The notes under the pieces were generated by a model that worked only from the letters and a program-made list of their open reading frames with translations, had not been told where the DNA came from and ran no database searches. Below, piece by piece: positions 46,967 to 63,282 of a stretch of 64,000 nucleotides of DNA (position 1 is the first letter of the stretch; each line of letters opens with the position of its first letter). The stretch is from NCBI RefSeq assembly GCF_001547895.1, contig NZ_AP014627.1, positions 3,351,501-3,415,500 on the forward strand, given 5' to 3'. Source of the stretch: Pseudomonas sp. Os17. Its GTDB lineage: Bacteria > Pseudomonadota > Gammaproteobacteria > Pseudomonadales > Pseudomonadaceae. The position numbers and the translations under genes were made by a program.

Positions 46967-47812
46967 GCCATTTAAAATAGCAGCCTGACAGTGGTCTTTG
47001 AACTCATTTTCTAAGTCATGCTCGTAATACAGCGCATCTAGCCAGAAAAAACCAACATGAGGCGTCTTATCAGCTAACGATTTAACATCGTTACCGCTGA
47101 GCTTAGGTAAGTGCAGGTTTATGATCTCAAACGCAAAAGATGCTGATGCCATCGCCCTATGCACTTTGTGTGACTCCATCGCTCCTACAATGCCCCTGGG
47201 GAGGCGCTTGCGAGGCCGCAGTGTATATCGCGTCTTAGCACTGAAAGCCAACTCAGAATAAATCCAGGGAGAAAACGTGCGATCGCCTTCAGCGAACCCT
47301 TCATGTCCTTTGATACTTACGGAGTTTTGGGTGTTGAAAAAGATGAAACACTCCGATGCATCAATCATTCGATGTAGCTCCTCATTCAACATTAAAAACA
47401 GAGAAGCCGCCACGTCATTGCATTTATCGTAAGAGAAGTTGGTGGTTCCACCTACCTCTTCTTTATCGGAGTAATGAGCATTTATCTTCAATAGCAAATC
47501 ACCCACATAGCCCCACACACAGGAGTCCACGAAGACTTTGACGCCCCGTTTTTCCAGAGAAAGCGCAAACTCGATAGCTTCACGCTCATCGCGATGGGAA
47601 TGCGACAAGAACACATGGGCGTCCTGCTGCGGGAATATTTTTTTAGCGAGCTCCTTGGCGTCAATCACGTCCTTTTTATCAATCTGACCTATAACATAGT
47701 TAGCCAGGTCATTGACCGCCGCGTCGCGGGCCTGTTTGCGATAATCATCAATGGCCGCATTACTGATCATCTCGAACGGTTTATAGTGCTCAATTTCAAA
47801 ACCCAGATACAT
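46964..47812 (-). CDS. TIR-domain protein, fourth TIR gene of the Thoeris operon
   Basis: 282 residues. A helical N-terminal region (~1-65) precedes a TIR-like core (AHVFLSHSHRDEREAIEFAL, then EKRGVKVFVDSCVWG) that has a long insertion before CFIFFNTQNS. The segment SPWIYSELAFSAK takes the place of the WxxWE motif of other TIRs. Longer and more divergent than the other three TIR genes. It follows the third by 54 bases. Its stop codon is fused to the antitoxin relic, so the natural C-terminus could be altered. Confidence 0.75.
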   Translation of the reverse strand: MYLGFEIEHYKPFEMISNAAIDDYRKQARDAAVNDLANYVIGQIDKKDVIDAKELAKKIFPQQDAHVFLSHSHRDEREAIEFALSLEKRGVKVFVDSCVWGYVGDLLLKINAHYSDKEEVGGTTNFSYDKCNDVAASLFLMLNEELHRMIDASECFIFFNTQNSVSIKGHEGFAEGDRTFSPWIYSELAFSAKTRYTLRPRKRLPRGIVGAMESHKVHRAMASASFAFEIINLHLPKLSGNDVKSLADKTPHVGFFWLDALYYEHDLENEFKDHCQAAILNG

Positions 47813-47866
47813 ATTGTCCCCAGCTCATTTTGATGAGAATCCGAATACCACCTGTAAAATTGGAAT

Positions 47867-48409
47867 TTAGCTCCGCAACCATGATTCCAGCGTTACGGCT
47901 GAGTCCGTCTTTTGTGAATAGACCATCCAGAGCTCATTTGAGTAGCCCTGAAGCTTCCCCCAGATTATTCTTGGATACAAACCCATGTATTCCCAAGATG
48001 ACCAACCATCAAGGCCTGCAGAATCAGAGGCACCGAAAATCGCGATTTTGTGAATCCCTTTTTTCCCATCGGCGACGCCCAGCTCCCATGGCACCCATCG
48101 GCTATCTTTGCTATTGGGACTCGTAAGGAGTACGAACCGCTTGCACTCAACAATCCGCTTCTTTAACAACTCCGCCGTCTCTTCCGACGTGTGACTCGGC
48201 ATTGCCGGGTCTACCTCATCGATATAGGGGACGCCGCCATGGCTAGCGATAACCTCAATGGCCCCCGCCACCAAATCCTCATCTTTACTGGAATGCGAGA
48301 TAAATGTCAGGTTGTGTGCTGACGCAGTCAAAGACTTCGTGAAATTGCGGCTTCGAGAGGCATTGGTAGCAATGCTTTTTAGTTCGGTTCTGGTGACGTT
48401 ACGAGCCAT
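47867..48409 (-). CDS. Thoeris ThsB-type TIR protein (third TIR gene)
   Basis: 180 residues. The TIR core begins LTFISHSSKDEDLVAGAIEV, followed by GGVPYIDEVDPAMP, a helix ELLKKRIVECKRFVLLTSPN and SRWVPWELGVADG, where the Glu is the expected catalytic residue of NADase TIRs. An N-terminal extension of ~30 residues is Arg/Ser-rich. It is 52 bases after the second TIR gene on the same strand. In Thoeris, ThsB proteins make a cyclic ADP-ribose signal on phage sensing (family knowledge). Confidence 0.82.
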   Translation of the reverse strand: MARNVTRTELKSIATNASRSRNFTKSLTASAHNLTFISHSSKDEDLVAGAIEVIASHGGVPYIDEVDPAMPSHTSEETAELLKKRIVECKRFVLLTSPNSKDSRWVPWELGVADGKKGIHKIAIFGASDSAGLDGWSSWEYMGLYPRIIWGKLQGYSNELWMVYSQKTDSAVTLESWLRS

Positions 48410-48461
48410 TTTCTTAGCCGTTAACTGTTAATTAATTGTTCCAAAGTTGGGCTTCAGACAT

Positions 48462-48995
48462 CTAGCGAGACGGATCATTTACGAAAGCCCAAAAGTCCGA
48501 GTGCACTTTAGAGGCATCCTCTACATACAATCGCTGATTTACTTGGTTGACCAAGGGATACAAGCCTAAGTATTCCTGGCCATCGAATCCGGAATTCACT
48601 GTATCTACGAGGGGAAGGATAGCGACACCACCGTCCTTGTAACCGTCGAAATAACCCAACTCCCAAGGCATCCATTTGGACTGACCTGATCGATCAGTCG
48701 CTATATAGATCAGGCTTGAGCAGTTGCGCATTCGCTGACGCAAGCGCTCCGCCGTTTCCTTGTCAACATGCTCGCGATCCAGCTCTTCATCTTCAACCCA
48801 ATCAATGTAAACGCTGTATCCCTGCTCTTTAAGCAACATGGCTACGCCCACTACCAGATCCTGGTCCAGCATCGAATGGGACAAAAACACATCGAACCGC
48901 TCATCCGAGTAGGACTCTAGTCCCGCAACTTGATCGAGCATATTTTCCGAGCGGCGCGCAGCAGCCTTTGCCTGCTCCTTGGTAAAAAAAGCCAT
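48462..48995 (-). CDS. Thoeris ThsB-type TIR protein (second TIR gene)
   Basis: 177 residues. FDVFLSHSMLDQDLVVGVAM starts the TIR core, with GYSVYIDWVEDEELDREHV, LRQRMRNCSSLIYIATDRSG and SKWMPWELGYFDG (putative catalytic Glu). Close in plan to the third TIR gene, suggesting duplication and divergence. It lies 31 bases after the first TIR gene in the Thoeris operon. Confidence 0.85.
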   Translation of the reverse strand: MAFFTKEQAKAAARRSENMLDQVAGLESYSDERFDVFLSHSMLDQDLVVGVAMLLKEQGYSVYIDWVEDEELDREHVDKETAERLRQRMRNCSSLIYIATDRSGQSKWMPWELGYFDGYKDGGVAILPLVDTVNSGFDGQEYLGLYPLVNQVNQRLYVEDASKVHSDFWAFVNDPSR

Positions 48996-49026
48996 GTATA
49001 CCTCTTAGAAGAATGAGAGAGAGCGC

Positions 49027-49503
49027 TTATGCGCACTCTTTGATAGCTGTTTCGATCCAGGTAGGCAGATTCGCTTTGATGACCCCGTACGCGTCATTTG
49101 AACGGGGATCGTACACCTTAGGTGTATAGACCGTTCCGTTGGCCCGCTTCAGAGTCAAGGAGCTGAAGGGATTAGTTCCGTATACTCCGATGCCAGCATT
49201 TGGGCATCGGAGGTTATGGATACGAACACCTAGAACTGGAATACCCAGTTCCCATGCCCTCATGATTTCGTATCGCACCCATTTACGGCTCGCTGTTTCC
49301 GCTCCGATCAAAACCACCAGGCAGGTCTTGCGCTGGAGATTCTCGTTGATCCAACGCTTAACGCCTTCATCAGAGCGCTTGATTTCTTCCCAGCGGTTTG
49401 GGCTGACCGGTTCATCCCCGTCGATAACACCCATGTTACGTATCTGCTGGACGCGCAACACGTCCTGGCCAAAATGGAAGCTGTAAAAAACGTTACGCTT
49501 CAT
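49027..49503 (-). CDS. thsB: Thoeris ThsB (TIR-like, DUF1863 type)
   Basis: 158 residues starting MKRNVFYSFHFGQDVLRVQQ and continuing IRNMGVIDGDEPVSPNRWEE, the DUF1863/TIR-like form found in classic ThsB. CLVVLIGAETASRKWVRYEI carries the putative catalytic Glu, and GVRIHNLRCPNAGIG is characteristic. It begins three bases after the ThsA stop codon. It should generate the nucleotide messenger that activates ThsA (family knowledge). Confidence 0.9.
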   Translation of the reverse strand: MKRNVFYSFHFGQDVLRVQQIRNMGVIDGDEPVSPNRWEEIKRSDEGVKRWINENLQRKTCLVVLIGAETASRKWVRYEIMRAWELGIPVLGVRIHNLRCPNAGIGVYGTNPFSSLTLKRANGTVYTPKVYDPRSNDAYGVIKANLPTWIETAIKECA

Positions 49504-49506
49504 GGA

Positions 49507-50955
49507 TCAAACCCCCGCCAGTTTCTTGACGATCCCGAGTACTATGTCCTCGATCACTTTGGCATCAGTCGAGCTTTCGTTTAGTTTTTTCAATTCGTCG
49601 GCCAGCCAAAGATCTTCAGGTATATAGCTACCGGGATCGGCAATCACTTTATCGGCCAGTTCTTTCGCCATATAGCCCGTTGCTCCAATAGGTACTGGAA
49701 CGACGCCTTTTGCAACGGCGATGTCGAATTCCTTTTGGACGCCTCCGGCATTTTCGATGCCGTTTTGGCCAGCCTTATTACCAAAGATAAATAGCGCGAT
49801 GCCTGACAGCGAGATCATGCGCTCGCGGTACTGTTGCCATAGCACACCCAAATCCTGGCCCTGCGATGCCACCTGGGGAAATGGCCTCATAACCAACTGA
49901 TCTTCTGAATACTTCTCTGGATTTGAATAGATAGCATCCAAGGCACCGTTGATTACGGCGCTTCCCACGCCCCATCCAAATCCATTGACTACGCGGTAGC
50001 CGGCTCGGATTAGGCTGGATGAGAGTGAGTGGATGAAGTTCAGCGCGTCATTTTTTTCCCAATCACCGTATTCTTCCGCGCTGCCGGCAATGAAGATGGT
50101 TTTCTTGAGGAACTGCTCCTCAATCGCCCTCAGAACTTTGGGAATGTCTTTGTAATCCTCGACCAGAAGCGTTTGGATTCCAAACCGCTTTAGGTCCCGA
50201 ATGTGCAATTCCTGCTTGCGCTGGCGGTATCGTACCGCCTCAGCGTCTTCGTTTTCATACGGAGTGGAGGGTTCGCGGCGCAGGAAGCAGTAGTGCTCAC
50301 GCCGCGCATGCGGTGGCACGTGCAGTCGACTCAGTACGTAATCAAGGTTCGGATCGGTGAAGCTGAAGCCGATGAAAAGGAAGGTCTTGGAGATCAAATC
50401 ACCGCTCAAAGCCGTGACAAAGGCCTCGTGCGTTTTGTAATACTGCTCGTATTGAGATTTATAGAGAATGGCCTCTGTGGAAGACAGTGCATCTCCGTGC
50501 ATTTTGTAAACAACGGCATCCCGCTTAGGTCGCGTGGTCAAGAGGTCGGAAACCTGATGCTTAACGTCTGGAACACGCTGGTTCTTACGAAGCGTATTTT
50601 CAATAAGTTGGTCGTAGTTGGTCGTCCAGTATGTTCTGATTGGCAAGCGGGCCAGAATTTGGTGCGAATCCGACGGCTCCGCATGCTCGGAGAACTCGTC
50701 AATGATGCGACGAGCCAGTCCACCTGATCCGCTGCGCTCGTTAACGTGAAACTGGGCAAGTGAAACCAGGTCGTGCTCCTTGTCAACCGAAAGCCCGAGC
50801 TCTTCCGCTACCTCTCGCATCAGCTCTGGCCAGTTCACGTAGCCGCAATCCCGAGAAAGCCCAGCCCCCGCAAAGACTGCGGCAACACCTTCATTCAGAT
50901 CCCGGACGTACCGGCGAATAAAAATTTCAATTTCTGCCGAAAACTTTTTCCGCAT
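49507..50955 (-). CDS. thsA: Thoeris ThsA: SIR2 NADase with C-terminal SLOG sensor
   Basis: 482 residues, the usual ThsA length. SIR2 domain: AAVFAGAGLSRDCGY (NAD-binding), YWTTNYDQLIENTL, VYKMHGDALSS with the catalytic His, and LFIGFSFTDPNLDYVL. The C-terminal SLOG/STALD domain (~310-480) begins TIFIAGSAEEYGDW and contains NGFGWGVGSAVINGALDAIY and GIENAGGVQKEFDIA. Activated ThsA depletes NAD and aborts infection (family knowledge). Start 50955 gives the family N-terminus with AAGGA ten bases upstream; an in-frame ATG at 51030 is poorer. First gene of a five-gene operon. Confidence 0.93.
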   Translation of the reverse strand: MRKKFSAEIEIFIRRYVRDLNEGVAAVFAGAGLSRDCGYVNWPELMREVAEELGLSVDKEHDLVSLAQFHVNERSGSGGLARRIIDEFSEHAEPSDSHQILARLPIRTYWTTNYDQLIENTLRKNQRVPDVKHQVSDLLTTRPKRDAVVYKMHGDALSSTEAILYKSQYEQYYKTHEAFVTALSGDLISKTFLFIGFSFTDPNLDYVLSRLHVPPHARREHYCFLRREPSTPYENEDAEAVRYRQRKQELHIRDLKRFGIQTLLVEDYKDIPKVLRAIEEQFLKKTIFIAGSAEEYGDWEKNDALNFIHSLSSSLIRAGYRVVNGFGWGVGSAVINGALDAIYSNPEKYSEDQLVMRPFPQVASQGQDLGVLWQQYRERMISLSGIALFIFGNKAGQNGIENAGGVQKEFDIAVAKGVVPVPIGATGYMAKELADKVIADPGSYIPEDLWLADELKKLNESSTDAKVIEDIVLGIVKKLAGV

Positions 50956-51965
<1,010 letters not shown>

Positions 51966-52096
51966 CCACTACAGCTGACGCGTTGAGGCTTTTGTAACGA
52001 GGAGAACTATCCCGCTCTAACGGAGCTTCCAGCCAGGCTTGCAGATTTTCTGTATTTTTAAATACGTTCCACGTAATATTTTTTAGATTTTCGATC

Positions 52097-52133
52097 TATT
52101 AGGTCGGATAAGATTTAATTATCAGACCTAATA
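52097..52133. promoter_or_regulatory. Large imperfect palindrome upstream of the kfrA-like gene
   Basis: Outer arms TATTAGGTC / GACCTAATA and inner arms GATAA / TTATC combine into a 15-bp inverted repeat with one mismatch around a 7-base centre, ending 16 bases before the kfrA-like start codon. KfrA proteins bind repeats in their own promoters, so this is a probable autoregulatory operator (inference); a recombination site is an alternative. Confidence 0.55.
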
Positions 52134-52149
52134 TGCGCCGAGGTGAGTC

Positions 52150-53040
52150 ATGGCAGTAGGGGTACCGGAACACGAGGTGTTTGCCGCCGCGGACGCGGTG
52201 CTCGCCCGCGGTGAACGGCCGACGGTGGAGCGGGTACGCCTGGAACTGGGACGCGGCAGCCCGGCGCGAGTGGGTGGATTGCTCGATCAATGGTGGGCAC
52301 GTCTGGCCGAGCGGCTGAGCGGTGAGACTCGCCTGCCGACGTTGCCGGGCGAGGTATCACAGGCCTTTGTCGCGGTGTGGCAGCAGGCGATTCATCTGGC
52401 ACAGGGCGTCGTCGAACAGGGTTTGGCCGAACAGTGCTGAATGATGAACGCGAACGAATGGCGGCGGCGGAAGATCAAGCGCGTCAGGACATGGCCAAGG
52501 CGCGTCAGCAGGTTGCAGAAGCGGTGGCAGGGCGGCAGGCCGCCGAACTACGTTTGGCTGACCTGGAGCTGCTACTGTCCCAACGTCAAACACAGATTGA
52601 TGACTTGCAACAGCAACGGGAGAGCGCGGCGCACGAGCGCCGTGAGGCCCAACAGCACCCCCAGGAATTGCAGCAGGAACCGCAGGCGTTACGACTCAAG
52701 GCCGAGCAGGAGCATGTCGCGCAAGAGAACTATGTGCGCGGCATTGAGGATCGGGCTCATCGCGAGATTGATCGCTCTCGGGAAGAGGTCAAGGCTGTTG
52801 CAAATCAGTTAAAGGCCGCCAGCCGAAAGAGTGATGACCTGCAGCGAAAACTGGAGCTGTCTCAGAGCGAACTCAGCCAGGCGCAGCAACGGGCAACCGC
52901 ACAGCTAGCTCGGGCTGAAACCTTGGAGCAGCAGCTGATTCGAATGCGTGAGCTGCCTAAGGTTACGCGTAAGCCAAGAGTCAGAAAAGTTCAGCAACAC
53001 ATAATCGCCAAGAGTGAGGAGCTTTCGCGCCATAGAATGA
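52150..53040 (+). pseudogene. kfrA-like DNA-binding/coiled-coil gene, frameshifted
   Basis: The first 96 codons (52150-52440) encode a KfrA N-terminal DNA-binding domain: VFAAADAVLARGERPTVERV, RLELGRGSPARVGGLLDQWW. They end at a TGA right after GLAEQC. In the +2 frame the protein continues without a break as LNDERERMAAAEDQARQDMA and a long Gln/Glu/Arg-rich coiled coil to about LPKVTRKPRVRK (~52990). A single missing base near 52434 restores one frame. The 3' end past ~53040 is not convincing and overlaps the DUF3800 gene. GAGGTGA precedes the start. KfrA-like genes typify plasmids and integrative islands. Confidence 0.72.
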
Positions 53041-53212
53041 CTGCTATCGGCCAGAAGCAGTCGGTGGACTATGCGATGGCAAATTGGTGGCTTTTCTCCG
53101 CCTTTGTTGCGATATTCAGATCAGAATTAGGCCCCCCCCACCAGCGTCCTCTTAGACCAATAGGGGCACTAATGTGCCGAACACCAATTTATATCACTAC
53201 AAGGAATGTGGA

Positions 53213-54340
53213 ATGTCACAAAAAATATATTTCGATGAGTCCGGATTTACAGGGAACAATCTGCTGCACCCAAGACAGAATTACTTCGCCTACGCCTCGG
53301 TTGCTACAGATGATGATGAGGCGAAAACCACTGTAGAGAGGATTATTAAGAAATACAATATCCAAGGGGGCGAGCTAAAAGGCGCCAATCTTGTGAAGTT
53401 TGCGAAAGGCAGGAAAGCAATCACGGAGGTGCTTGATGCTTTCGATGGTCGAATTAAAGTCTCAGTTTCTGACAAAAAGTTTGCCTTGGCGGCAAAGTTT
53501 CACGAGTACATTTTTGAGCCTTGTTATTCCGATATCAACTCTCTTTTCTATGGGATTGGTTTCCACCGTTTCATAGCGAACGTGCTGTATATGGAGTTCA
53601 TCACCCGCGGTGCGGGTGCGGATGAACTATTTGCTGAGTTTGAAGCACTGATGAGGGATGGCAGCGGGCAAAATCTCGAAACTATTTTCTCGTCGTCAGC
53701 GGTTGCGGAGCACTCCGAGACTATCAGGTTGATCCGTGAGTTTGCCCAAAAGCGTCACCAAGATATTCGAAGTGAATTGGCATCATTAGCGAACGGTGAG
53801 ACGGGCAAATGGGTGCTTGATCTGACCAACTCCGCTTTATATACCCTCTTGGCTAATTGGGGAGTCGAGCATGAGATAATCACAGCAGTCTGCGATCACT
53901 CTAAACCCCTCCAACACAACCAGGAGATGTTCACCTCAATGGTGGGCAATACGACAAAGAGTTTCTCTGAAATGGGGGGAGAGCAACATCCGATCACGTT
54001 CAACCTGTCTGGCCCAATAGAATTTGCTGCATCCCATGAAGCACACGGCATTCAGATTGCGGACGCCGTCGCTGCTGCGGCCGTGTACGTTTTTTCAGGG
54101 GTCAAAGATGAATCGGCTGACCATTGGCGGCACATCATTGCACGACAGGCTCGTTATGGCAGCGTAGTGCCCGACATGGATGAAGTGAGACTCGAACTTC
54201 AGCGAGCCCAACGCAATACTCTTCTATTGCAGCACTTGCATCGCAGGGCGATGGAGGAAGTGAGTCTCACAGAGGGCTTGCCACAGGTGATTGCAGATAT
54301 AACGCGCAGGTTGAGAGTTTCACCTTTTCAGATGGGGTAA
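53213..54340 (+). CDS. DUF3800 protein
   Basis: 375 residues, start with AAGGAATG upstream. It begins MSQKIYFDESGFTGNNLL, the DUF3800 hallmark (YxDESG), and near the end has HGIQIADAVAAAAVYVF, the conserved QxAD. These acidic residues suggest a metal-dependent nuclease-like site (inference; biochemical role not established to my knowledge). DUF3800 genes are frequent in defence islands. It is 328 bases upstream of the GTPase-associated operon on the same strand and probably a separate unit. Confidence 0.8.
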   Translation: MSQKIYFDESGFTGNNLLHPRQNYFAYASVATDDDEAKTTVERIIKKYNIQGGELKGANLVKFAKGRKAITEVLDAFDGRIKVSVSDKKFALAAKFHEYIFEPCYSDINSLFYGIGFHRFIANVLYMEFITRGAGADELFAEFEALMRDGSGQNLETIFSSSAVAEHSETIRLIREFAQKRHQDIRSELASLANGETGKWVLDLTNSALYTLLANWGVEHEIITAVCDHSKPLQHNQEMFTSMVGNTTKSFSEMGGEQHPITFNLSGPIEFAASHEAHGIQIADAVAAAAVYVFSGVKDESADHWRHIIARQARYGSVVPDMDEVRLELQRAQRNTLLLQHLHRRAMEEVSLTEGLPQVIADITRRLRVSPFQMG

Positions 54341-54668
54341 ATCGGCTCTGAGTTTGCAGGCACTCGAGACGGCTGTTGGCCGTTTTCTGCCTCTCGCCAA
54401 GGGCAGCGATCGGCAAGAAGCGGTCCGTCATATTTGTATCGCTCTGACTTTTGTTATCGGGTCCAAGCGTAAAACTCCCGCTCTTGAGCCAAAGAAATAG
54501 CTGGAGACACGGATAAGCTAGGCGCTAAGACAGCTATGCATTTTTGCTAGAGGCGTCGAGGTCATGATGATGTCCAATTGCTCTCACCTCCGCTGGGGAT
54601 TTAGTATAGGTTTAGTCCTCCGCCCAGTGGTGGCTGAGGCCATGATCAAGGAAGAGATTCAGCCTGTT
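54341..54668. other. Promoter region of the GTPase-caspase operon
   Basis: 328 bases. Contains an imperfect copy (54394-54428) of a sequence found inverted just after the operon (61421-61450). Otherwise no gene; the promoter for the operon should lie here. In-frame ATGs at 54564 and 54642 could extend the first gene. Confidence 0.45.
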
Positions 54669-55985
54669 ATGAGCGACCAAATCCTACTTCGTTTTCTGGG
54701 TGCAGGGCTGATTGACGTGGGCGGCGATGATGCCAAGCTCGCGAAGCTCAGAGAGACTGCCTCCGATCTAGCTGCTGCTTTAAAAAAGGCGCCATCCAAG
54801 ACCTCCTCGTTTGCCCTCATTGCCTTTGATCCTGCGTCACCCGAGGAGGATCCAGTCATCACAGAGGTGTGTGATGCGCTTCAGAAGCGGTGGCCGACCT
54901 ACATCAATACTTTCTCTGGTACACCCATGATGGTGCTGCGGGCTCTGCTGCTCGATGCGCTCGTCCAGGCTGCCAGCGACGAAAAGGTGGGTGTTGCGTT
55001 TGTCACTTCAGCTCGCAATGCACTGCCCTTTATCGAGGCTGGTAACGAGCAAAAGATCTGGGTAGAGGCAGTGTTGGAGATTGAGAGTCGAGTTGACGCT
55101 CGCGCCGAGACAGAGTGGGCGACCCCAGACTCTATCGACGCCCCTGAGTTAAAGTACTCGGCTCCGCCTGCAGTTAAAATTTCCTCGCAGGCTCTGACCA
55201 TCGATACTGAAAGCCTGACTGCCACTTTACAGGCTGCGGCGGGACCTAACGGAGCTGGCCCGAACAAAAACCGCTTTTGGCCACACGGAGACCCTCAGAA
55301 TTGGGCAACTGATTTTGGACGTTTGGCTGCTAATGCGATAGCCGGAGCGATTGATGCCGCCAGCGAAGATGTTCAGAGCGCCCCGGTAGATATTTCTGGG
55401 CCGCTGAGAGCACTGTCAGTAGCAGTGGCAACACATGTTGGGGATACGCTGAGGCTTGTAAGTGCGGCAACTGCGGGCCTGCAGCGAAGAACAAATCTGA
55501 TTTGGTGGAAAGAGACCCTATACTCCCCCAGCGCTCGCGTCAGCTATCGTGCGCTTCCAGTATCGACTGTGGGGGCGCTGATGGCCTTGGACCTGCACCA
55601 ACAGGTGCCCACCTTCTCGCCCGTAAGTGTTGCCGAGTTTCTCAGTGAGACCGTATTGAGCCTGGCCTCCGTGGATCCCGCGAAAAAACAGTCTATACGT
55701 GAGCTCGTTTGTGAGGCTGTCGAATCAGCAGAGCTGAGCCCATTGCGGGCGGTTGCGCGTCAGCTCGTTCCGCAGCTTAGTGGGCGAGGTCCTATTTTGG
55801 GTTTGCTTGCAGAACAACAGGGTAAGTTTGCGATAGACGACGCCCAGTTCCGCGCGAGGGTCGGCGTACCTGCTGATGCGGTCCTGACCATCCCTGAGTG
55901 GGCCGCTTGGATTTTCAGGGAGTTGCAGGCCGCTCGGGCTACGCAAGAGGTTGTGAAGGCTAAGAAGCCTGGAAGTAAAGCCTAA
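54669..55985 (+). CDS. GTPase-associated system helical protein (GASH type)
   Basis: 438 residues, beginning MSDQILLRFLGAGLIDVGGD and largely alpha-helical with Ala-rich stretches (RLAANAIAGAIDAASEDVQS, LRLVSAATAGLQRRTNLIWW). Position and content match the helical first component (GASH) of the GTPase-associated systems described computationally in the bacterial EAD/death-domain work from the Aravind group. The C-terminus is Lys-rich. It has no enzymatic motif and probably acts as a structural or sensing subunit. The start is uncertain (54564, 54642 or 54669); 54669 fits the conserved beginning best. Its stop overlaps the next start by one base. Confidence 0.75.
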   Translation: MSDQILLRFLGAGLIDVGGDDAKLAKLRETASDLAAALKKAPSKTSSFALIAFDPASPEEDPVITEVCDALQKRWPTYINTFSGTPMMVLRALLLDALVQAASDEKVGVAFVTSARNALPFIEAGNEQKIWVEAVLEIESRVDARAETEWATPDSIDAPELKYSAPPAVKISSQALTIDTESLTATLQAAAGPNGAGPNKNRFWPHGDPQNWATDFGRLAANAIAGAIDAASEDVQSAPVDISGPLRALSVAVATHVGDTLRLVSAATAGLQRRTNLIWWKETLYSPSARVSYRALPVSTVGALMALDLHQQVPTFSPVSVAEFLSETVLSLASVDPAKKQSIRELVCEAVESAELSPLRAVARQLVPQLSGRGPILGLLAEQQGKFAIDDAQFRARVGVPADAVLTIPEWAAWIFRELQAARATQEVVKAKKPGSKA

Positions 55986-56938
55986 TGAGTGCTTGCTCGC
56001 GCCCTTCATGTTTTGCCCCTGATTGCAGTTGCGACTTGGGCTTTGTGAACCACACTAAATGTCCAAGTTGGGGGGCTGGGGACGAGGAGGTATCAGCATC
56101 CGCGGTGGGGGACGCTAACAGCTTGCTGCTTCCTTGGTCGGGAAGTGCGCTGGGGCTCTCTGATTTGAGCTTTGTCGCAGGCCCAGGAAAGCCAATGGTC
56201 GTCGGGGTGGTAGGGCCACAGAACGCTGGAAAGACTACGCTGCTCGCGGCTTGGTACCTGTTTATCGGGCGCGGTCTGGCTTGCTCTGAAAAACGCCGCT
56301 TTGTCGGTTCCTATTCATTAGCAGGTTGGGAAGCGCTGGCAGGTTCGTTGCGATGGACTCCAGGTAATCCCCCCAATTTTCCACCGCACACCTCCAGCCG
56401 GGGCGGGAGAGCTCCGGGGCTTTTACATACTTCATTTAGAGGTGGCTCAGGTGATGTTCGCAGCTACCTATTTACCGATGCCCCGGGCGAATGGTTCCAA
56501 CAATGGTCCATGAACCGTGATGCGCCTGATGCACAGGGTGCACGCTGGGTGGCAGAGCATGCGGATATGTTCTTGCTGATTGCAGATCGCCAAGCACTTG
56601 CTGGAGAGAATAAAGGATCAGCACGTAGTGCCCTTCAGGTATTGGCTCGCAGACTTGCAGCAGAGCGTTCTGACCGTCCAGTTGCGCTCGTTTGGACCAA
56701 AGCTGATGTGACCATCGCACCAGAAATTGAAACGGCTGTCCGCGATGCAGTGTTGAAGTTAATGCCTGATGCACGTGAGTTTCTGGTCAGCATCTCTAGC
56801 TCGGGTGATGACGAGAATAAGGGGCAGGGGCTTCTCGAATTGCTCGATTGGACCCTTGATATCCGGAGAGCTCGCCTTTTCTTACCACCGCCCCAAGCGA
56901 CTAGCTCGGATCTTCTGTTCATGTTTGGGGTGAAGTAG
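55985..56938 (+). CDS. Double-GTPase 2 (DO-GTPase2) with N-terminal zinc-binding cysteines
   Basis: 317 residues. The N-terminus carries C4, C9, C14, C16 and C26, a likely zinc-ribbon. The GTPase core has P-loop GVVGPQNAGKTT (77-84 for GPQNAGKT), a switch II-like YLFTDAPGEWF and a base-specificity strand VALVWTKAD (TKAD in place of NKxD). It overlaps the upstream gene (TAATG) and is followed after two bases by the second GTPase. Part of the EAD1-linked GTPase system; probably a conformational switch upstream of the caspase effector (inference). Confidence 0.78.
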   Translation: MSACSRPSCFAPDCSCDLGFVNHTKCPSWGAGDEEVSASAVGDANSLLLPWSGSALGLSDLSFVAGPGKPMVVGVVGPQNAGKTTLLAAWYLFIGRGLACSEKRRFVGSYSLAGWEALAGSLRWTPGNPPNFPPHTSSRGGRAPGLLHTSFRGGSGDVRSYLFTDAPGEWFQQWSMNRDAPDAQGARWVAEHADMFLLIADRQALAGENKGSARSALQVLARRLAAERSDRPVALVWTKADVTIAPEIETAVRDAVLKLMPDAREFLVSISSSGDDENKGQGLLELLDWTLDIRRARLFLPPPQATSSDLLFMFGVK

Positions 56939-56940
56939 CC

Positions 56941-57798
56941 ATGAGCGTTAGTGATAACTCGATCCTGCTCCTCGGTGAGTCAGGTGTCGGCAAAACCCAC
57001 TATGGTGCGCAGCTTCTTAACCGTTTAATGAATGGTGCTGGCAAGTTACGGATGGATGGGGCAGCGACGAACCTTCAGCCTTTCGAGTCCGCTATGGGGC
57101 GCCTGAACGAGGGGCTTACTGCGGATCACACGCCCACTACCACCTACGTTGATAGCCTTTGGCCAATCACTGACGAAAACGGACTGAAGGCCGAGCTGAT
57201 ATGGCCGGATTATGGCGGTGAGCAGATTAAGACCATGTCCTCAACCAGGCAAATTCCTGCTGCCTGGCGCGATCGTGTCGTGGTCTCGCCGGCCTGGCTA
57301 CTACTGGTTCGCCTCCAGCAAACTCGGGTGAGTGAAGACATCTTCTCCCGCCCGCTGAACGATATCACCGGTGCGAGCGTTGATAATCGAGAGGTGCAGG
57401 TCTCCGATCAGGCGCGCCTCATCGAGTTGCTGCAGATGCTGATTTATATCCGAAATGAAAGCACCTCGAAGCCGCTTGCAAGCCCTCGCCTAGGAGTACT
57501 TTTGAGCTGCTGGGATGAGCTAGGCGCTGATGAGCTCAATCAACCACCTGCACAAGTCTTGGAGCACAGGCTTCCTATGTTCTCCAGCTTCATTCACGGT
57601 CTTTGGGCTGAGCCTTTGGTGCTAGGCCTTTCCGCGTTGGGGCGAGCGCTCGCGCCCAATTGCAGTGACATGGATTACGTTGTTCAAGGCCCTGAGCACT
57701 TTGGCTACGTGGTGTTGCCAAATGGGCAGCACACTCCAGATCTCACTCAACCGATCCAATCCCTCTTAGCAGCTAGCGCTCTAAAAGTGGCAGGGTAA
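56941..57798 (+). CDS. Double-GTPase 1 (DO-GTPase1)
   Basis: 285 residues. P-loop ILLLGESGVGKTHYG (12-19 for GESGVGKT), switch II region IWPDYGGEQIKTM (D-x2-G), and LSCWDELGAD at the position of the NKxD strand. The two adjacent P-loop GTPases with different specificity motifs are the defining pair of this system. Start two bases after the previous stop, end four bases before the GAP1 gene, so strictly co-transcribed. Confidence 0.78.
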   Translation: MSVSDNSILLLGESGVGKTHYGAQLLNRLMNGAGKLRMDGAATNLQPFESAMGRLNEGLTADHTPTTTYVDSLWPITDENGLKAELIWPDYGGEQIKTMSSTRQIPAAWRDRVVVSPAWLLLVRLQQTRVSEDIFSRPLNDITGASVDNREVQVSDQARLIELLQMLIYIRNESTSKPLASPRLGVLLSCWDELGADELNQPPAQVLEHRLPMFSSFIHGLWAEPLVLGLSALGRALAPNCSDMDYVVQGPEHFGYVVLPNGQHTPDLTQPIQSLLAASALKVAG

Positions 57799-57802
57799 TG
57801 CT

Positions 57803-60262
57803 GTGATAGTTGAACAGGCCGTATTTGGTGAAGCTCTTGGCGGGCATGCTCTTCGTATGGCCAGTGATGCCTCGTGCATTCCTCCGGAGCTAGCGGCCCG
57901 TCTAGACTTGCCTGATACAGCACCGCCGGGAGTCGTATGGTCTCCTTATGTAAGCGGCTTTGCCCTCGGTGAGTGGTATGTTTTGGCACGCACCTTTGCA
58001 GACCCTTTTTCAAGCAGGCCTGGAATGGTCATCTCGCATGCCGTCCTAGCTCCACTTCAGGAAATGCTCTGCTGGAGTGATCTGAGACCTCTGTTTGGGC
58101 TTCTTATTAACTCACCCAAGCCTCCGGATGTGCTCACCTCGTTAGAGTTGTCGCCCTCAAAGGCAGTGCAGAGAACTACGTCGGACTTGATTGCTACGGC
58201 GCAAGCGCTGGTTACTCGTGGCAAAGGACCCGTTGTGAAAATTGGTCTTAACGGTTACGAGGAATTGATAACGGCTCTTTGGGCTAACTGCTGGCCAGCC
58301 ATCCGCACACGCTTTGCTTTTCGGCTCAGCTTTGGTCCGCATGATGTTGTGGAGCTACCAGAGCCTACTATTGTGTGTTCGCCTTCAGTGCTAGCTGCGC
58401 GGTGGGGCGGGCATCGCATCGTGGGGGGCAATAGCTCGGGCGCATTGACGCGTGCTGCAGCCATGCTCAGTGACAATACCGAAGCCGCACCCATCCTGCG
58501 TTATGCGCAGGAAATTGGCGCTCAGGTTACACAATTCTCGGATTTGCCAATGCTAGAGCGTGTCTTCGATGCTAGCACTTCGATGAGCTCGACTTTTGAG
58601 CAGTGCTTAGCAACTATTCGATTGGTAGAACGGCTGTCCCCAGAGTGCTCGATTGGGACAGCGGCGAAAGAAATAGTGATCGAGAAATTTTTGCTGCAGC
58701 TAGGCAGCGCGACCGTAGCGCAGGTCTTACAGCTGCGAAATTTAAATGCAGACGGCTTTGCTTCATCGAGCAGGATCTGGGTTGCTCTGGAGTCTTGGGC
58801 CGCAAAGAAGAAGTTCGAGCCTCACGAAGATGCGCAGATGCTATCCGCTATCAAGGATGCGCTGTCCGCGCCGGATGCGGTTGAACCCTGGCGTGAAGCG
58901 ATTATCGCCGGTATCTACGCGGCTTCACGTATGATTGCTAGTGAATTCCCCGCTGCATTCTGGCGCTGGGTAGTGGAGGGTGGTGACATCCTACAGGTTC
59001 TTTCCAAGCATTTACCTGTAGACGTTGCGTTGGAGGACCGGCTCGTCAATGCCGCGCCGAGGAAGATGACTGAAAGTGTTGGCGATGTAGTAATGCGAAT
59101 CGCCAAACAAAAGCAGTGGTATGCGCTTCACGGCGCAGCGGCAGGGGCGTGTCTTGACGTGAGGGATGCAGTCGAACGCCAGCTTTCGGTCGATGTGGCT
59201 GTGGAGTATCTCGACGGGCTTCGGGCGGTTTTACATCCCGTGGTCTCCGCGCAGTTGCTTGAGGTGGCTCTGAATATAGAGGAACCGCGGCTACTGCTCA
59301 TTGCTGCTGAGCGGGTCGCTAAGAACCCCAAGCTTCTGAGCGACTTCAACATTGCTGAAGCTCGAGTACAAGAGCTTTGGCTCAGAACGTTAGAGTTCAA
59401 TGCGGCCGCATGGGACGGGCCGCGAGAGCCATGCGAGGCATTCTTCTGCGTCCTGGAGAATCTATTGGACGGTCGGGCAGCTAACCGTCAGTTGATTACC
59501 ACGCTTTCCACCACACCTCTGGCCGATCTTAGCGAGTATCCGAGGCTGACGGAGGTGTGGGGACGAGTGCATGAGCCCGCTCTTGAAAATTTACTGCGTG
59601 CGACTAGTTTGGGTTGGCTCAAGCACGCTTCGGAGGGTCGATTTTCGCCCCCCGATGCCCGACTTCAAGCCTTCATGCTTGCTGGCTCTGAGCTATACCT
59701 CGCGCTTGAAGGGCAGACGCCTCCTGGATACTGTATTCAGATCATGGCGATCTTGCATCAGTTCAACGAGTCGCGATTGATTCGGTGGCTCGATGTCTGG
59801 TCCAAGTCGCCAAATGTATTGTCAGCATCAGAGGCTGAAGCGCTTGGTCACTTGATCTTGAAGAGAAACTGGACCAGGGCCGCAGATACGCTGTTTAAGT
59901 TTCGCTCAAGCCGCAGCGATATCTGGCCCGCGCTGAGACTTTGTGCCGACCTACTGGGAACGATCAATCGTTGGCGAATTCGGTTATTGTCGCGCTCGGC
60001 GCAGGATGATTGGGACTGCCTGGAGGCGGTGGCCGTAGAACTGTATCCAGAAGGGCCAGATCACGAAGAGCTTTGGAGTCGTGCGGGCGGTCGCAATGCT
60101 GACCTACAGCACGGCGGAAGCGGGCGAATTCGTTGGCACCACGCACTTGTCCAAATTAAGAACGGAAAGGGACCGCACGTCAGAAACCTGCTGAGAGAGA
60201 TGCGGCGCGAGTATTCGTCGAATGAGCTTCTCAGAGAGTTAGATAATGACGCCCATTTTTAA
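57803..60262 (+). CDS. GTPase-associated protein 1 (GAP1) with C-terminal EAD1 adaptor
   Basis: 819 residues, GTG start. The N-terminal part (VEQAVFGEALGGHALRMASD, FALGEWYVLARTFADPFSSR, GMVISHAVLAPL) matches the GAP1 N-terminal domain; the middle ~500 residues are alpha-helical. The last ~75 residues (from 747) are an effector-associated domain 1: LYPEGPDHEELWSRAGG, LQHGGSGRIRWHHAL, IKNGKGPHVRNLLREM. The same domain ends the caspase encoded next, so GAP1 probably recruits the caspase by EAD1-EAD1 contact (established concept for EADs; this pairing is inference). Start ATG alternatives are internal. Intact. Confidence 0.8.
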   Translation: MIVEQAVFGEALGGHALRMASDASCIPPELAARLDLPDTAPPGVVWSPYVSGFALGEWYVLARTFADPFSSRPGMVISHAVLAPLQEMLCWSDLRPLFGLLINSPKPPDVLTSLELSPSKAVQRTTSDLIATAQALVTRGKGPVVKIGLNGYEELITALWANCWPAIRTRFAFRLSFGPHDVVELPEPTIVCSPSVLAARWGGHRIVGGNSSGALTRAAAMLSDNTEAAPILRYAQEIGAQVTQFSDLPMLERVFDASTSMSSTFEQCLATIRLVERLSPECSIGTAAKEIVIEKFLLQLGSATVAQVLQLRNLNADGFASSSRIWVALESWAAKKKFEPHEDAQMLSAIKDALSAPDAVEPWREAIIAGIYAASRMIASEFPAAFWRWVVEGGDILQVLSKHLPVDVALEDRLVNAAPRKMTESVGDVVMRIAKQKQWYALHGAAAGACLDVRDAVERQLSVDVAVEYLDGLRAVLHPVVSAQLLEVALNIEEPRLLLIAAERVAKNPKLLSDFNIAEARVQELWLRTLEFNAAAWDGPREPCEAFFCVLENLLDGRAANRQLITTLSTTPLADLSEYPRLTEVWGRVHEPALENLLRATSLGWLKHASEGRFSPPDARLQAFMLAGSELYLALEGQTPPGYCIQIMAILHQFNESRLIRWLDVWSKSPNVLSASEAEALGHLILKRNWTRAADTLFKFRSSRSDIWPALRLCADLLGTINRWRIRLLSRSAQDDWDCLEAVAVELYPEGPDHEELWSRAGGRNADLQHGGSGRIRWHHALVQIKNGKGPHVRNLLREMRREYSSNELLRELDNDAHF

Positions 60263-60293
60263 TGGTGCCAACTAACGGAGCACTGGAGTAAGG

Positions 60294-61394
60294 ATGAATA
60301 CGCGAGAGGTAATCGAGGTGGATGAGAAGACACCTTCTGCGGATCGGCATGCGTTAGTCGTTGCTGTAGCAAATTATGCGCAGGCCCCTGTGCTACCGTG
60401 TTCTGTTCTCAACGACGCCCAAGATGTTGTTGCCACGCTCACTTCTGCTGCTCACTGCGGTTACGCGCCGCAGAACGTCAAGCTGCTACTGGACACACAG
60501 GCGACACTGGATGCGATCCGTCAGGAACTCGACGCGCTGGCGGCGCGCGCTCAACCGAGCGATACCGTTCTGATTTTCTTCTCAGGCCATGGTGCCCGTC
60601 TGGGCGATGAAAGCGCCTTAGTGCCCGTTGATTGCGACTCGCACCGTGTCGCTCAAACCACATTGGCTGAGCAAGAGTTCTCCGCTGCGCTTGCCCGTAT
60701 TAAGGCTGAGCGTTTGGTTGTCCTGATTGATGCGTGCCATGCAGGCGCCGCCGCGAGCTTTAAGAGCATCAGCGCTACGCTGGATCTTGGCTTCAATGAG
60801 AAATCGCTTAACCAACTGGCTCAAGGCACCGGGCGCGTAATGATCGCGTCGTCTAGGGCGACTGAGTACTCGTATGCTTTGGGGGGAGCGCGAAACAGTC
60901 TCTTTACGGAACATTTGTTAGGAGCTTTAAGGGGGGGCGCACGTACTCAAGGCGATGGGCTGATACGTGTTTTTGAGGTGTTTAATTACGTCAGCGAAAG
61001 AGTGCGTCATGCCATGCCAGGCCAGCAGCATCCCATTTTCAAAGCTAGTGATTTGGAAGATAATTTTCCGATTGCGCTTGAGCTTGGTGGAGTGAAACGC
61101 CTCGATGCTACGTCTGCGGCAGCAGAGAGTGGCAAGGTGTGGCGCCAACTCGAAGAAATTTTATCGGACCTTTATCCGGCAGGACCTCAGGATCAAGACA
61201 TTTGGCTGCGTGCCGGTGGCGATATTTCCCGCTTACGCTTGGGGGGGACAGGCCGCGCTAGCTGGTTCGCTGCGCTGCGTACGCTTAGACAAGGCGGCGG
61301 TGGGGCTGAAATAAATCAAAGCTCCTTAATCGACTCGGCTTTGCAGGATTTTCCACATCACCAAGAGCTAAAGAATTTTGCCATCGGCAGCTAA
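60294..61394 (+). CDS. Caspase-like protease (peptidase C14) with C-terminal EAD1
   Basis: 366 residues. The metacaspase/caspase fold has DRHALVVAVANYAQAP, the catalytic His99 in IFFSGHGAR and catalytic Cys148 in VLIDACHAGAA; MIASSRATEYSYAL and SLFTEHLLGAL follow as in C14 peptidases. From ~285 to the end is an EAD1 domain (LYPAGPQDQDIWLRAGG, LRLGGTGRASWFAAL, LRQGGGGAEI) homologous to that ending GAP1. It is the likely effector of the operon: once recruited it would cleave host proteins and cause cell death or dormancy (inference). 31 bases after GAP1. Confidence 0.88.
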   Translation: MNTREVIEVDEKTPSADRHALVVAVANYAQAPVLPCSVLNDAQDVVATLTSAAHCGYAPQNVKLLLDTQATLDAIRQELDALAARAQPSDTVLIFFSGHGARLGDESALVPVDCDSHRVAQTTLAEQEFSAALARIKAERLVVLIDACHAGAAASFKSISATLDLGFNEKSLNQLAQGTGRVMIASSRATEYSYALGGARNSLFTEHLLGALRGGARTQGDGLIRVFEVFNYVSERVRHAMPGQQHPIFKASDLEDNFPIALELGGVKRLDATSAAAESGKVWRQLEEILSDLYPAGPQDQDIWLRAGGDISRLRLGGTGRASWFAALRTLRQGGGGAEINQSSLIDSALQDFPHHQELKNFAIGS

Positions 61395-61929
61395 TGGCCG
61401 ATTACTGCCGACCGCGCATCGTCGCTTCTGGCCGGTCGCTCCCTTTCGCAAACGACAGCAATAGGTTCATTGCAGCGATCAATCGTACTGGATAGGAATT
61501 CGAACCCTTTCTAAGATCGTTTCAGACCGCTTCAGGCCTTAGAATACGGGCATTTACACCCGGCATTTTGGTTCTCTGCGGTCTATGGCCGCCTCTGATT
61601 TGCCCTGAATATGCCTTAATTCACTTTCAACGTTTACGCGCTCCCTCGAACCACCAAGGACTGTTTTCGGCCAGGAATAGCTACCGCAGGAGACCGCCTT
61701 CAGTCGGAAACGGGCGATGACAAATAAATTTGTCCCTTTTCAGTCCCTTGGCCATTCCGCCTGAAGAGATCAACCAGTTGACGCTTGGCTTGATGCTCGA
61801 CGTCCTGAAGGGGCAGGGCGGAGAGGTCGATACAGCCCGAGTTACTTCGGCGGCGCAGTTGCGTTTGGTCAAGGGGTAGGGCGCCCAGGACCTCCTCGGC
61901 GTCCGCCGTTTACAGGTCGATAGCTGCCG
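61395..61929. other. Decayed region downstream of the caspase gene
   Basis: 535 bases. Starts with the inverted partner (61421-61450) of the sequence before the operon. Between ~61745 and the TAG at 61877-61879 a + strand frame reads LPPEEINQLTLGLMLDVLKG, GGEVDTARVTSAAQLRL, which looks like the end of a real but unrecognised gene. No start codon with a ribosome site. Confidence 0.4.
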
Positions 61930-62180
61930 CCCCGGATTCTCTAGACACCTTGCAAGCTTATTGCGTAACGCTTTTCAAACTCTACCGGTGACAGCTGATT
62001 GTTGAAACCATGGCGGCGTTTTGCGTTGTAGAACATCTCGATGTAATCAAACACATCACTACGAGCATCTTGCCGCGAGGTTATGAAGGCTGGTTGTATT
62101 TGGCGGTGGTGCTGGATCTGTTTTCTCGTCAGGTCGTTGGCTGGTCAATGAAGTCGCAGATGACCAGTGATATCGATGTT
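61930..62180. mobile_element. Two IS3-family fragments, head to head
   Basis: On the - strand, 62075 down to 61946 encodes an OrfB C-terminus ([40 protein letters not shown], stop), followed by the terminal sequence CCCCGGATTCTCTAGACA (61930-61947 as read on +). This is the same element as at 29 kb, in inverse orientation. From ~62086 the + strand instead encodes [20 protein letters not shown] and [11 protein letters not shown], a middle part of an IS3 OrfB. The two pieces meet near 62080. Neither is functional. Confidence 0.75.
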
Positions 62181-63282
62181 AGCCCTTGGTGGTGTCTGTT
62201 GCAACTTCCCCTGCTCGGCGGTGAAAGCTACGATTATTGCTTGATAAATGATTTGAGCATGGTTATCTGGCCAGATGGATTTTCCACTCATTATTCTATG
62301 GGCGTGGTTTGGGGTTTTCGTTTTCTAGTTAGTTTAGCTGTTAATTGTCAGGCTTCGATCACTGGCCCACTGTGCTGTGGAGTTTTGGCCTATATAAGCA
62401 TTTAAATAAATATTGGATGATTTTTGGTATGCGTTGAGGTCGCTAGTTAGCGCCGCTTTCGGGGCCGCCGCTCGGTGCCAATTGTTGAGTAACCCACCAG
62501 TGGCCGAAGGCCTGAATTGAGAACGCCGGGCCAAACAATAAGTGGAAAATCACGAACGGTTTTTCCATTTAAAGATTTAAACGGAAAAGCCATTTTGAAT
62601 GTCCACTAATTTCTTTGAATTTTGGAAAGTGCCCGATTTTCGGGGGGTTCAGGGGATTTTGGGCGAAATGGGCAAACGGATTTTCCACTCATTGTTTTAA
62701 AGGATGGCCGCAAAATTTCAGGAAACGGAGATCGGGCTGTACGGCGTCATTGTGTCGATTTGCGTGCCGTTGAACGTATTGTCGTTGACCAGGAACGCCG
62801 GCGGGCATCCGTGTGTGCGATCGGCTGGATAGACTGCTGGCTAGGAACTATGGGGCTTTGAGGGGATTCAGCAGCAACAGATGACTTGGGCTCAGGGCGT
62901 TTTTTTCCATCGGCACAGGGCCATCGGGAGCTGTATGGAAAATAATGAGAGGGCTGGTGTTGCATGGAATGTCCACTAATTACGTCTCAGGAGTTGGTAG
63001 CTCGGAATGTCCACTTAAATCTTCAAATGGCGCTGGAGCCCTTGTCCAGTGCGGGCTCCAGGGTTGGCAGGGTTTCGCAACGTCAGAATTCATTCCACTA
63101 ATTTCTCCTTGGCCGAGAGAGCTATTCCATTTGGAGCGATTTCTTGAAAATCAATAAAAATCAATGACTTGAGATCATGCCGAACCAGGGCGTATGGTGG
63201 GCTGAAGCCTCCGGAATACAAGAGCTTGAGGGGGCTGGAGGGGGACATTCCACTCAAAACGCGATTGGTGCAGCTGTCACAG
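62181..63282. repeat. Gene-poor region with repeated GGAATGTCCACTAATT-like motifs
   Basis: 1.1 kb without a convincing gene. It contains at least seven related short sequences: 62277-62293 and 62678-62693 (GGATTTTCCACTCATT type), 62536-62553 (inverted), 62597-62611 and 62967-62981 (GAATGTCCACTAATT, identical), 63005-63020 (GAATGTCCACTTAAAT), 63090-63106 and 63243-63259 (weaker). Clustered short repeats of this kind resemble multiple transposase-binding sites at mobile-element ends, but no matching transposase gene is present. Confidence 0.5.

What the first reader, a model, noticed from the sequence alone, without database searches (positions are those of the whole stretch)
54669..61394. Complete EAD1-coupled double-GTPase/caspase operon
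Five co-directional genes with overlaps or gaps of 31 bases or less encode a helical protein, two distinct P-loop GTPases, a GAP1-like protein and a caspase-like protease. GAP1 (747-819) and the protease (~285-366) end in visibly homologous EAD1 domains (shared LYP, RAGG, G.GR..W..AL). Known: such systems were predicted by comparative genomics as GTPase-gated apoptosis-like immunity. Inference: a GTPase-controlled trigger releases GAP1, which recruits the caspase. The catalytic dyad H99/C148 is intact. I am not aware of an experimental mechanism for this five-gene form.
Basis: partly seen in the sequence, partly recalled or inferred. Interest (0 to 1): 0.88.

Follow-up and report, generated by a model that had tools for sequence, protein, structure and literature searches.

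The report
GTPase-gated bacterial caspase defence cassette
A five-gene bacterial cassette beside two known anti-phage systems probably uses a pair of GTPase switches to activate a caspase-like protease through two matching docking domains; this kind of system was predicted in 2020, and the docking domains look like a plug and a socket with swapped charges rather than two equal halves.

Summary
54669-61394 encodes GASH, Cys-rich DO-GTPase2, DO-GTPase1, GAP1-N1...EAD1 and caspase(C14)-EAD1, all over Pfam cut-offs. This is the GAP1-N1 GTPase-centric system predicted by Kaur et al. 2020 (PMC7159879), EAD1-linked caspase included. Listings from seven searches of the held library showed no experimental study of it. 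I add: (i) a discrete ~7 kb cassette, 92% identical to a P. chlororaphis copy without detected flanking similarity; (ii) it neighbours Gabija and Thoeris, and relatives ride on plasmids and a Leptospira phage; (iii) 51 systems pair it with a caspase (44) or nucleosidase (7), one more with a trypsin; elsewhere the nucleosidase is fused onto GAP1 where EAD1 would be; (iv) EAD1 is usually a private pair per genome; (v) the two EAD1s form two series with a swapped charge motif, RAGG[K/R]xxD in GAP1 and RAGGDxxR in effectors (30 of 51 pairs full, 0 reversed). The link is probably heterotypic, a refinement of the published homotypic model; against this, co-change tests are weak and the trypsin's EAD1 lacks the motif. 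GTPase gating, docking, protease activation and the phage trigger are inferred.

The parts
54669..55985 (+). GASH, all-helical GTPase-associated protein (438 aa); function unknown, possible sensor or scaffold
   Evidence: Pfam PF19994 2.1e-99; no PDB relative by profile, best E 0.17
55985..56938 (+). DO-GTPase2 with Cys-rich N-terminus
   Evidence: Pfam PF19993 1.8e-60; in 51 aligned rows C4, C9, C26, K83 (P-loop), K239 and D241 (TKxD) kept in 51, D165 in 50
55994..56062 (+). Cys-rich N-terminal segment of DO-GTPase2 (probable zinc ribbon)
   Evidence: C4, C9, C26 invariant in 51 rows; the remaining cysteines were not tested; ZnR described by Kaur et al.
56941..57798 (+). DO-GTPase1 (285 aa); P-loop G12...K18-[ST]19, PDYGGEQ segment
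   Evidence: Pfam PF19975 2.5e-73; only match in the genome
57803..60262 (+). GAP1: N1 domain, long middle region, C-terminal EAD1 (819 aa, GTG start)
   Evidence: Pfam PF20012 3.5e-23 and PF19955 8.4e-7
57809..58102 (+). GAP1-N1 domain
   Evidence: Pfam PF20012, residues 3-100
60008..60247 (+). EAD1 of GAP1 ('plug'), motif RAGG-R764-N-A-D767-L
   Evidence: PF19955
60294..61394 (+). Caspase-like (C14) protease with C-terminal EAD1 (366 aa)
   Evidence: Pfam PF00656 1.7e-23 and PF19955 4.4e-10
60588..60590 (+). Catalytic His99
   Evidence: 44 of 44 distinct homologues
60735..60737 (+). Catalytic Cys148
   Evidence: 44 of 44 distinct homologues
61128..61382 (+). EAD1 of the caspase ('socket'), motif RAGG-D310-I-S-R313-L
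   Evidence: PF19955
54411..61410 (+). Extent of the cassette: nucleotide homology with P. chlororaphis PCL1601 (L027) begins and ends here
   Evidence: blastn 92% over 7000 bases, nothing else between L027 and the window at E 1e-20; boundary alignments

Best explanation
It is a horizontally mobile GAP1-N1 type, GTPase-gated immune cassette. A GASH protein and two unlike P-loop GTPases hold GAP1 in check and set a threshold. When an intruder, most likely a phage, disturbs this assembly, GAP1 exposes or clusters its C-terminal EAD1. That domain docks, through a specialised two-sided (heterotypic) interface, on the EAD1 of the caspase-like protease and brings protease molecules together. They become active and cleave one or more cell proteins (substrate unknown), stopping growth or killing the cell before the phage spreads. 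Shown: gene content, intact catalytic and nucleotide-binding motifs, effector swapping on a constant core, direct fusion in place of EAD1 in relatives, mostly private EAD1 pairs, two EAD1 series with swapped charges, mobility, defence-island setting. Inferred: GTP gating, physical EAD1-EAD1 binding, proximity activation, cell death, phage as trigger.
For: All five domain families over cut-off. Same core with alternative EAD1-tagged effectors in 51 non-duplicate loci, caspase 44 and nucleosidase 7, and a trypsin in L076. In 6 of 6 GAP1s of about 1030 aa the nucleosidase, and in L069 a CHAT protease, is fused at residue 749-778 onwards, where EAD1 (736-815) sits here: EAD1 pairing stands in for a covalent link. 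EAD1 occurs twice and only here in this genome; of 49 host genomes only 3 had an EAD1 match outside the operon. H99/C148 in 44 of 44. GAP1-EAD1 and effector-EAD1 separate by protein, not by operon; same-column charge reversal at two positions, 30 of 51 full, 0 of 51 reversed, and 5 of 8 further plasmid or phage pairs, 0 reversed. Gabija and Thoeris lie within 12 kb upstream; a Leptospira phage carries a five-gene form beside an integrase gene; cassette limits. Mechanism outline proposed by Kaur et al..
Against: No binding, protease, GTPase or phage assay here or in the papers seen. The charge swap is largely inherited: the tree-aware test of GAP1 column 34 against effector column 37 is not significant (about 3 same, 1 opposite, p 0.625); the plain Fisher test of that pair gives 1.6e-4 but ignores kinship, and the pair that a salt bridge would join (GAP1 D767 with effector R313) does not co-vary (p 0.58). 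Five of 51 pairs are like-charged at column 34. EAD1 distances in the two series do not correlate beyond the rest of the proteins (partial r 0.03). The branch that separates the series is only moderately supported (84/20). Column pairs that are simply invariant reach higher opposite-charge counts. The EAD1 of the trypsin effector in L076 was missed by my profile and lacks the RAGG/DxxR motif.
Confidence: 0.58

Rival explanations
1. Homotypic model (Kaur et al. 2020): EAD1s are equivalent copies that self-associate, perhaps polymerise like CARD or Death domains, and any EAD1 protein in the cell can join.
For: Stated in the paper (sections 28 and 30). The window's EAD1s are clearly homologous, with shared near-invariant W, RxGG, G and W positions. 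The motif-less EAD1 of the L076 trypsin suggests that the swapped charges are not essential everywhere.
Against: The paper's tendency that EADs of adjacent genes are closest to each other fails here: in 0 of 51 systems is the partner the nearest EAD1; own-pair identity 38% against 37% for non-partners, although the own partner ranks somewhat better than average (median rank 14 of 51). The most discriminating column is a D/R reversal. Mostly private pairs leave little else to recruit.
Confidence: 0.27
2. Restraint model: EAD1 pairing holds the caspase inactive in a resting complex with GAP1, and GTPase action releases it, as the first reader's word 'releases' suggests.
For: Nothing here fixes the direction of the switch.
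Against: GAP1-nucleosidase and GAP1-CHAT fusions cannot let go of their effector, so in those relatives activation should occur within the complex.
Confidence: 0.2
3. The caspase is a specific initiator that cleaves one partner, for example a pro-enzyme, rather than many cell proteins, as in the tested canu caspase-nuclease systems.
For: Canu (PMC12799240, abstract and passages seen): the caspase activates a linked nuclease. In L076 an EAD1-trypsin is followed by an Endonuclease_NS gene.
Against: No further gene lies inside the 54411-61410 cassette, so a partner would have to be encoded elsewhere.
Confidence: 0.3
4. The cassette serves another conflict (plasmid exclusion, inter-phage competition on the mobile element) and not host defence against lytic phages.
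For: Carriage on plasmids, four of them typed conjugative, and on a Leptospira phage.
Against: Here it lies on the chromosome near Gabija and Thoeris, both anti-phage systems (established knowledge).
Confidence: 0.2
5. A cellular regulatory or cell-death module unrelated to infection.
For: No trigger is known.
Against: Rare and patchy: GAP1-N1 in 7 of 398 genomes of the genus, GASH in 4 of 398 of the phylum, own genome counted in both; swappable effectors; mobility.
Confidence: 0.07

Closest known systems
[quoted passage not shown] section 28 read in full, passages of others)
   Same: GASH, two DO-GTPases (one with zinc ribbon), GAP1 with C-terminal EAD1, EAD1-tagged caspase effector
   Different: Nothing in composition. 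The two EAD1s here form two series with swapped charges, against the paper's statement that adjacent EADs tend to be closest to each other
GAP1-N1 systems with GAAD-calcineurin effectors
   Same: Same core; L015 and L016 from the same genus
   Different: Effector gene lies first and uses GAAD, not EAD1
EACC1-associated caspases (NCBIfam NF047832)
   Same: Caspase domain matches at 3.3e-32
   Different: Below the curated cut-off (111.7 against 140 bits); no EACC1 gene was looked for by profile; different core
Canu caspase-nuclease systems (PMC12799240, abstract and passages seen)
   Same: A bacterial caspase effector with tested anti-phage activity
   Different: By those passages its caspase carries an Ig-like fold and activates a linked nuclease; 'GTPase', 'GAP1' and 'effector-associated' do not occur in its main text
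Bacterial Death-like/EAD adaptor systems (PMC8195603, passages seen)
   Same: Small adaptor domain on core and effector
   Different: bDLDs are other families; no profile link of EAD1 to Death-fold domains was tested
Thoeris with caspase-like effector (Rousset et al. 2025; seen only as a reference in PMC13373217 and PMC12799240)
   Same: A bacterial caspase-like effector in immunity, by its title
   Different: Activated by TIR signalling, by its title; the rest is not tested here

Membership tests
GAP1-N1 GTPase-centric system | GAP1 with GAP1-N1 domain | tested here: met
   PF20012 82.3 bits, cut-off 27
GAP1-N1 GTPase-centric system | Two DO-GTPases, one with an N-terminal zinc ribbon | tested here: met
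   PF19993 and PF19975; invariant C4, C9, C26; zinc binding itself not testable
GAP1-N1 GTPase-centric system | GASH protein in the operon | tested here: met
   PF19994 333.9 bits, cut-off 27
GAP1-N1 GTPase-centric system | Effector coupled by fusion, EAD1 or GAAD | tested here: met
   EAD1 on GAP1 and on the caspase, 29.8 and 40.3 bits, cut-off 24.2
EAD principle (Kaur et al.) | EAD copies of adjacent genes tend to be closer to each other than to others | tested here: not met
   0 of 51 systems; 38% own against 37% other; trees
EAD principle (Kaur et al.) | Homotypic physical interaction | not testable with these tools
   structure prediction switched off
Caspase (C14) peptidase | C14 profile with His-Cys dyad | tested here: met
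   PF00656 1.7e-23; H99 and C148 in 44 of 44; metacaspase-1 match
Caspase (C14) peptidase | Proteolytic activity | not testable with these tools
   -
Anti-phage defence system | Protection against phages | not testable with these tools
   context only: Gabija and Thoeris neighbours; PADLOC gives no match for GASH or GAP1, only weak P-loop matches for the GTPases and a generic caspase

The most novel reading that the evidence does not exclude
EAD1 coupling in these systems is a dedicated heterotypic lock and key: a donor EAD1 on the GTPase-controlled GAP1 (RAGG[K/R]xxD) and an acceptor EAD1 on the effector (RAGGDxxR) diverged early, disfavour self-pairing by like charges, and let a catalytic domain that carries the acceptor (caspase, nucleosidase) be plugged into the same GTPase core.
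Probability: 0.42. Interest if true: 0.66.

Novelty: new member of a known kind. Interest (0 to 1): 0.5.

Why it matters
It is a complete, intact, compact and mobile example of a predicted class in which GTPases gate a caspase, a logic that recalls apoptosis. The swapped-charge motif turns the central unproven step (does EAD1 join GAP1 to the effector, and how?) into a two-residue experiment, and the nucleosidase, trypsin and fusion relatives are ready-made effector swaps.

Tried and rejected
Structure prediction of GAP1 and GASH (tool switched off). Own-pair similarity as proof of cognate pairing: rejected by the data. Mirror-tree signal for EAD1: r 0.81 among 44 caspase systems (0.84 over all 51), but nil (0.03) once the rest of each protein is allowed for. 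Net charge complementarity: no (means -0.96 and -1.20, correlation 0.14). Co-change on the tree: not significant. Profile or sequence search against the PDB: no relative of GAP1 or GASH (best E 0.25 and 0.17) nor of the GTPases at E 0.01. Repeats at the cassette ends: none of 12 bases or more within either end region; one end against the other gave only 18- and 10-base matches at E 0.47. Near DNA copies in plasmids and E. coli: no match. EAD1 sampling in Actinomycetota for an outgroup: besides the centre genome, one match, below the cut-off, in 148 others. PF19964 was queried by mistake for EAD1 (it is EAD11; no match). Viral contigs: two loci (L084, L085) with a partial DO-GTPase1 match, no ORF of theirs matched my five profiles. 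A hunt for papers on the Leptospira phage found none.

Selection to bear in mind: the loci were fetched with DO-GTPase1 peptides around PDYGGE and CWDEL, so conservation of those motifs is not independent. L041 and L037 were dropped as duplicates of L018 and L019 before the pair counts. Three GAP1-EAD1s without an effector-EAD1 found by my profile are not in the 51: L051 (caspase ORF without EAD1, followed by a transposase gene), L068 (contig end) and L076 (trypsin). Genes were called by a simple longest-ORF script, so a few loci show fragments or missing genes. Plasmid loci were found by similarity to the window's own EAD1s and their motifs were read by eye, so they are not a fully independent test.
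Full report
Check of the observation. The five ORFs, their order, spacing and coordinates are as stated. Pfam assigns GASH, DO-GTPase2, DO-GTPase1, GAP1-N1 + EAD1 and Peptidase_C14 + EAD1, all over the curated cut-offs. The two EAD1s match each other (3e-15). PADLOC 2.0.0 has no match for GASH or GAP1, weak P-loop matches for the GTPases and a generic caspase match. EAD1 occurs exactly twice in the 6.89-Mb genome, both here, and DO-GTPase1 once.

What is known. Kaur et al. 2020 (PMC7159879; outline, section 28 in full and passages of others) describe GAP1-N1 systems with GASH, two DO-GTPases of which one has a zinc ribbon, and effectors fused to GAP1 or linked by EAD1 or GAAD; caspases and trypsins are among the effectors. 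The window is a textbook member. Searches by family names, by caspase, GTPase and phage terms and by EAD terms listed no experimental study of these systems in the held open-licence library; I judged by listings and opened four papers besides Kaur et al. (PMC8195603, PMC12136450, PMC13373217, PMC12799240; passages only). Subscription papers are not held.

Distribution and mobility. GASH was found in 4 of 398 genomes drawn from the phylum and GAP1-N1 in 7 of 398 of the genus, own genome counted in both. A scan of genome contigs for DO-GTPase1 gave 60 loci, among them Pseudomonadota, Actinomycetota, Bacteroidota, Deinococcota and Spirochaetota. The nearest, P. chlororaphis PCL1601 (L027, 95% protein identity), matches the window over 54411-61410 at 92% and nowhere else at E 1e-20 (18.9 kb against 64 kb), so the operon seems to move as a unit; no repeats mark its ends. 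My profiles find GASH, both GTPases, GAP1 and an EAD1 gene on plasmids of Rhizobium, two Sinorhizobium, Mesorhizobium, Skermanella, Enterobacter (GAP1 in two ORFs) and Deinococcus (other gene order), but only an EAD1 ORF on the Paraburkholderia plasmid. A five-gene form whose last gene is annotated as a phosphorylase family protein and carries EAD1 lies beside an integrase gene in Leptospira phage KF114878. In the window, Gabija (42596-46188) and a Thoeris locus with ThsA and four ThsB-like genes (46964-51030) lie upstream.

Effectors are exchanged on a constant core. Without two duplicates, 51 loci hold both a GAP1-EAD1 and an effector-EAD1. All 44 distinct caspases keep H99 and C148. L076 has a third kind: a trypsin-like protease with an N-terminal EAD1 (36.1 bits), followed by an Endonuclease_NS gene. 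In 6 of 6 GAP1s of about 1030 aa (L071, L072, L073, L075, L081, L082) GAP1 has no EAD1 but carries the nucleosidase itself, from residue 766-778 on, and in L069 a CHAT protease (749-891). Two same-genus relatives (L015, L016) use calcineurin-GAAD.

EAD1 wiring. In 49 host genomes searched with the Pfam EAD1 model, 37 show exactly two matches, 8 one, 2 none, and one each three and four. In all 10 with fewer than two, the copy that Pfam missed is seen in the operon by my own profile. Only 3 of 49 (G798, G813, G820) have a match outside the operon; in G813 that is an effector-like piece on another contig. So the link is usually a private pair. The paper states that EADs of adjacent genes tend to be closest to each other. 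Here this is not so: own-pair identity is 38% against 37% for non-partners, and in 0 of 51 systems is the partner the nearest EAD1; among GAP1-EAD1s alone the own partner ranks at a median of 14 of 51 (window: 45). GAP1-EAD1s average 46% among themselves, effector-EAD1s 52%. The careful tree separates 54 GAP1-EAD1s from 51 effector-EAD1s by one branch, with moderate support (84/20; 83% of bootstrap trees). The quick tree with four outside EAD1s needs 3 changes for GAP1.

A swapped charge motif. The column that best separates the series is 37 (GAP1 D767, effector R313); column 34 (GAP1 R764, effector D310) reverses too. Of 51 pairs, GAP1 has K/R at 34 in 37 and D/E at 37 in 45; the effector has D/E at 34 in 50 and K/R at 37 in 41. 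Thirty pairs show the full swap and none the reverse. Same-column opposition is 37 against 0 like-charged at column 37 and 36 against 5 at column 34; the next column has 15. Of 8 further plasmid or phage pairs, 5 show the full swap (L121, L122, L123, L125, L127); L124 and L129 keep some of the four residues, L128 is like-charged at column 34; none is reversed. This fits a heterotypic interface in which like charges disfavour self-pairing. Against it: the pattern is mostly inherited, tree-aware co-change is not significant, D767 and R313 do not co-vary, the L076 trypsin EAD1 lacks the motif, and no structure could be predicted.

The switch. DO-GTPase2 keeps the P-loop, a DxPGE segment and TKxD (K239 and D241 in 51 of 51 rows). 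DO-GTPase1 keeps a P-loop and P-[DE]-Y-[GA]-G-E; the strand end where TKxD would be expected seems to read [ST]-C-W-D-E, so its base specificity is open. That placement is my reading: the profile comparison of the two GTPases did not reach that far, and CWDEL was a search peptide. Two unlike GTPases suggest a heterodimer with one canonical and one divergent partner (inference).

Mechanism and verdict. I favour a GTPase-gated GAP1 that, once triggered, docks by its donor EAD1 on the acceptor EAD1 of the caspase, concentrates it and starts proteolysis that stops the cell. Docking and activation are inferred; the fusions argue that the effector works while attached to GAP1. Whether the caspase cuts many proteins or one, as in the tested canu systems, is open. 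The system is a new member of a predicted class for which I found no experiment; the plug-and-socket polarity is the new, directly testable point.

Noticed in passing
42596-46188: Complete Gabija pair: GajA-like (PADLOC E 0) and GajB-like (1.1e-262).
   Followed up: partly
46964-51030 (minus): Thoeris locus with ThsA (SIR2-STALD, 4.2e-200) and four different ThsB-like TIR genes in a row; perhaps several sensors for one effector.
   Followed up: partly
51453-54340 and 62010-62405: Integrase-core (transposase) ORF at 51453-51965, KfrA_N fragment at 52150-52440 and a DUF3800 gene between the Thoeris and GTPase loci; 62010-62405 looks like a transposase remnant by eye.
   Followed up: no
L128:5784-13235 (KF114878.1): Leptospira phage carrying GASH, two DO-GTPases, GAP1-EAD1 and an EAD1-bearing phosphorylase-family gene next to an integrase gene: a phage-borne copy of the system.
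   Followed up: partly
L076:9853-14388: Algoriphagus GAP1-EAD1 system whose effector is an N-terminal EAD1 plus trypsin, followed by an Endonuclease_NS gene; this EAD1 lacks the RAGG motif.
   Followed up: partly
L124:1563-8207: The same system on an IncHI2A conjugative plasmid of Enterobacter kobei, with GAP1 in two ORFs; described only.
   Followed up: no
L129:264-6216: Deinococcus gobiensis plasmid form with a short EAD1 gene (181 aa) first and GAP1 last; that gene has no other Pfam match.
   Followed up: no
L071, L072, L073, L075, L081, L082: GAP1s of about 1030 aa in Bacteroidota without EAD1; all six end in a fused PNP/UDP nucleosidase.
   Followed up: yes
56941-57798: DO-GTPase1 seems to have [ST]-C-W-D-E where a TKxD motif is expected; nucleotide specificity is unclear.
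   Followed up: partly
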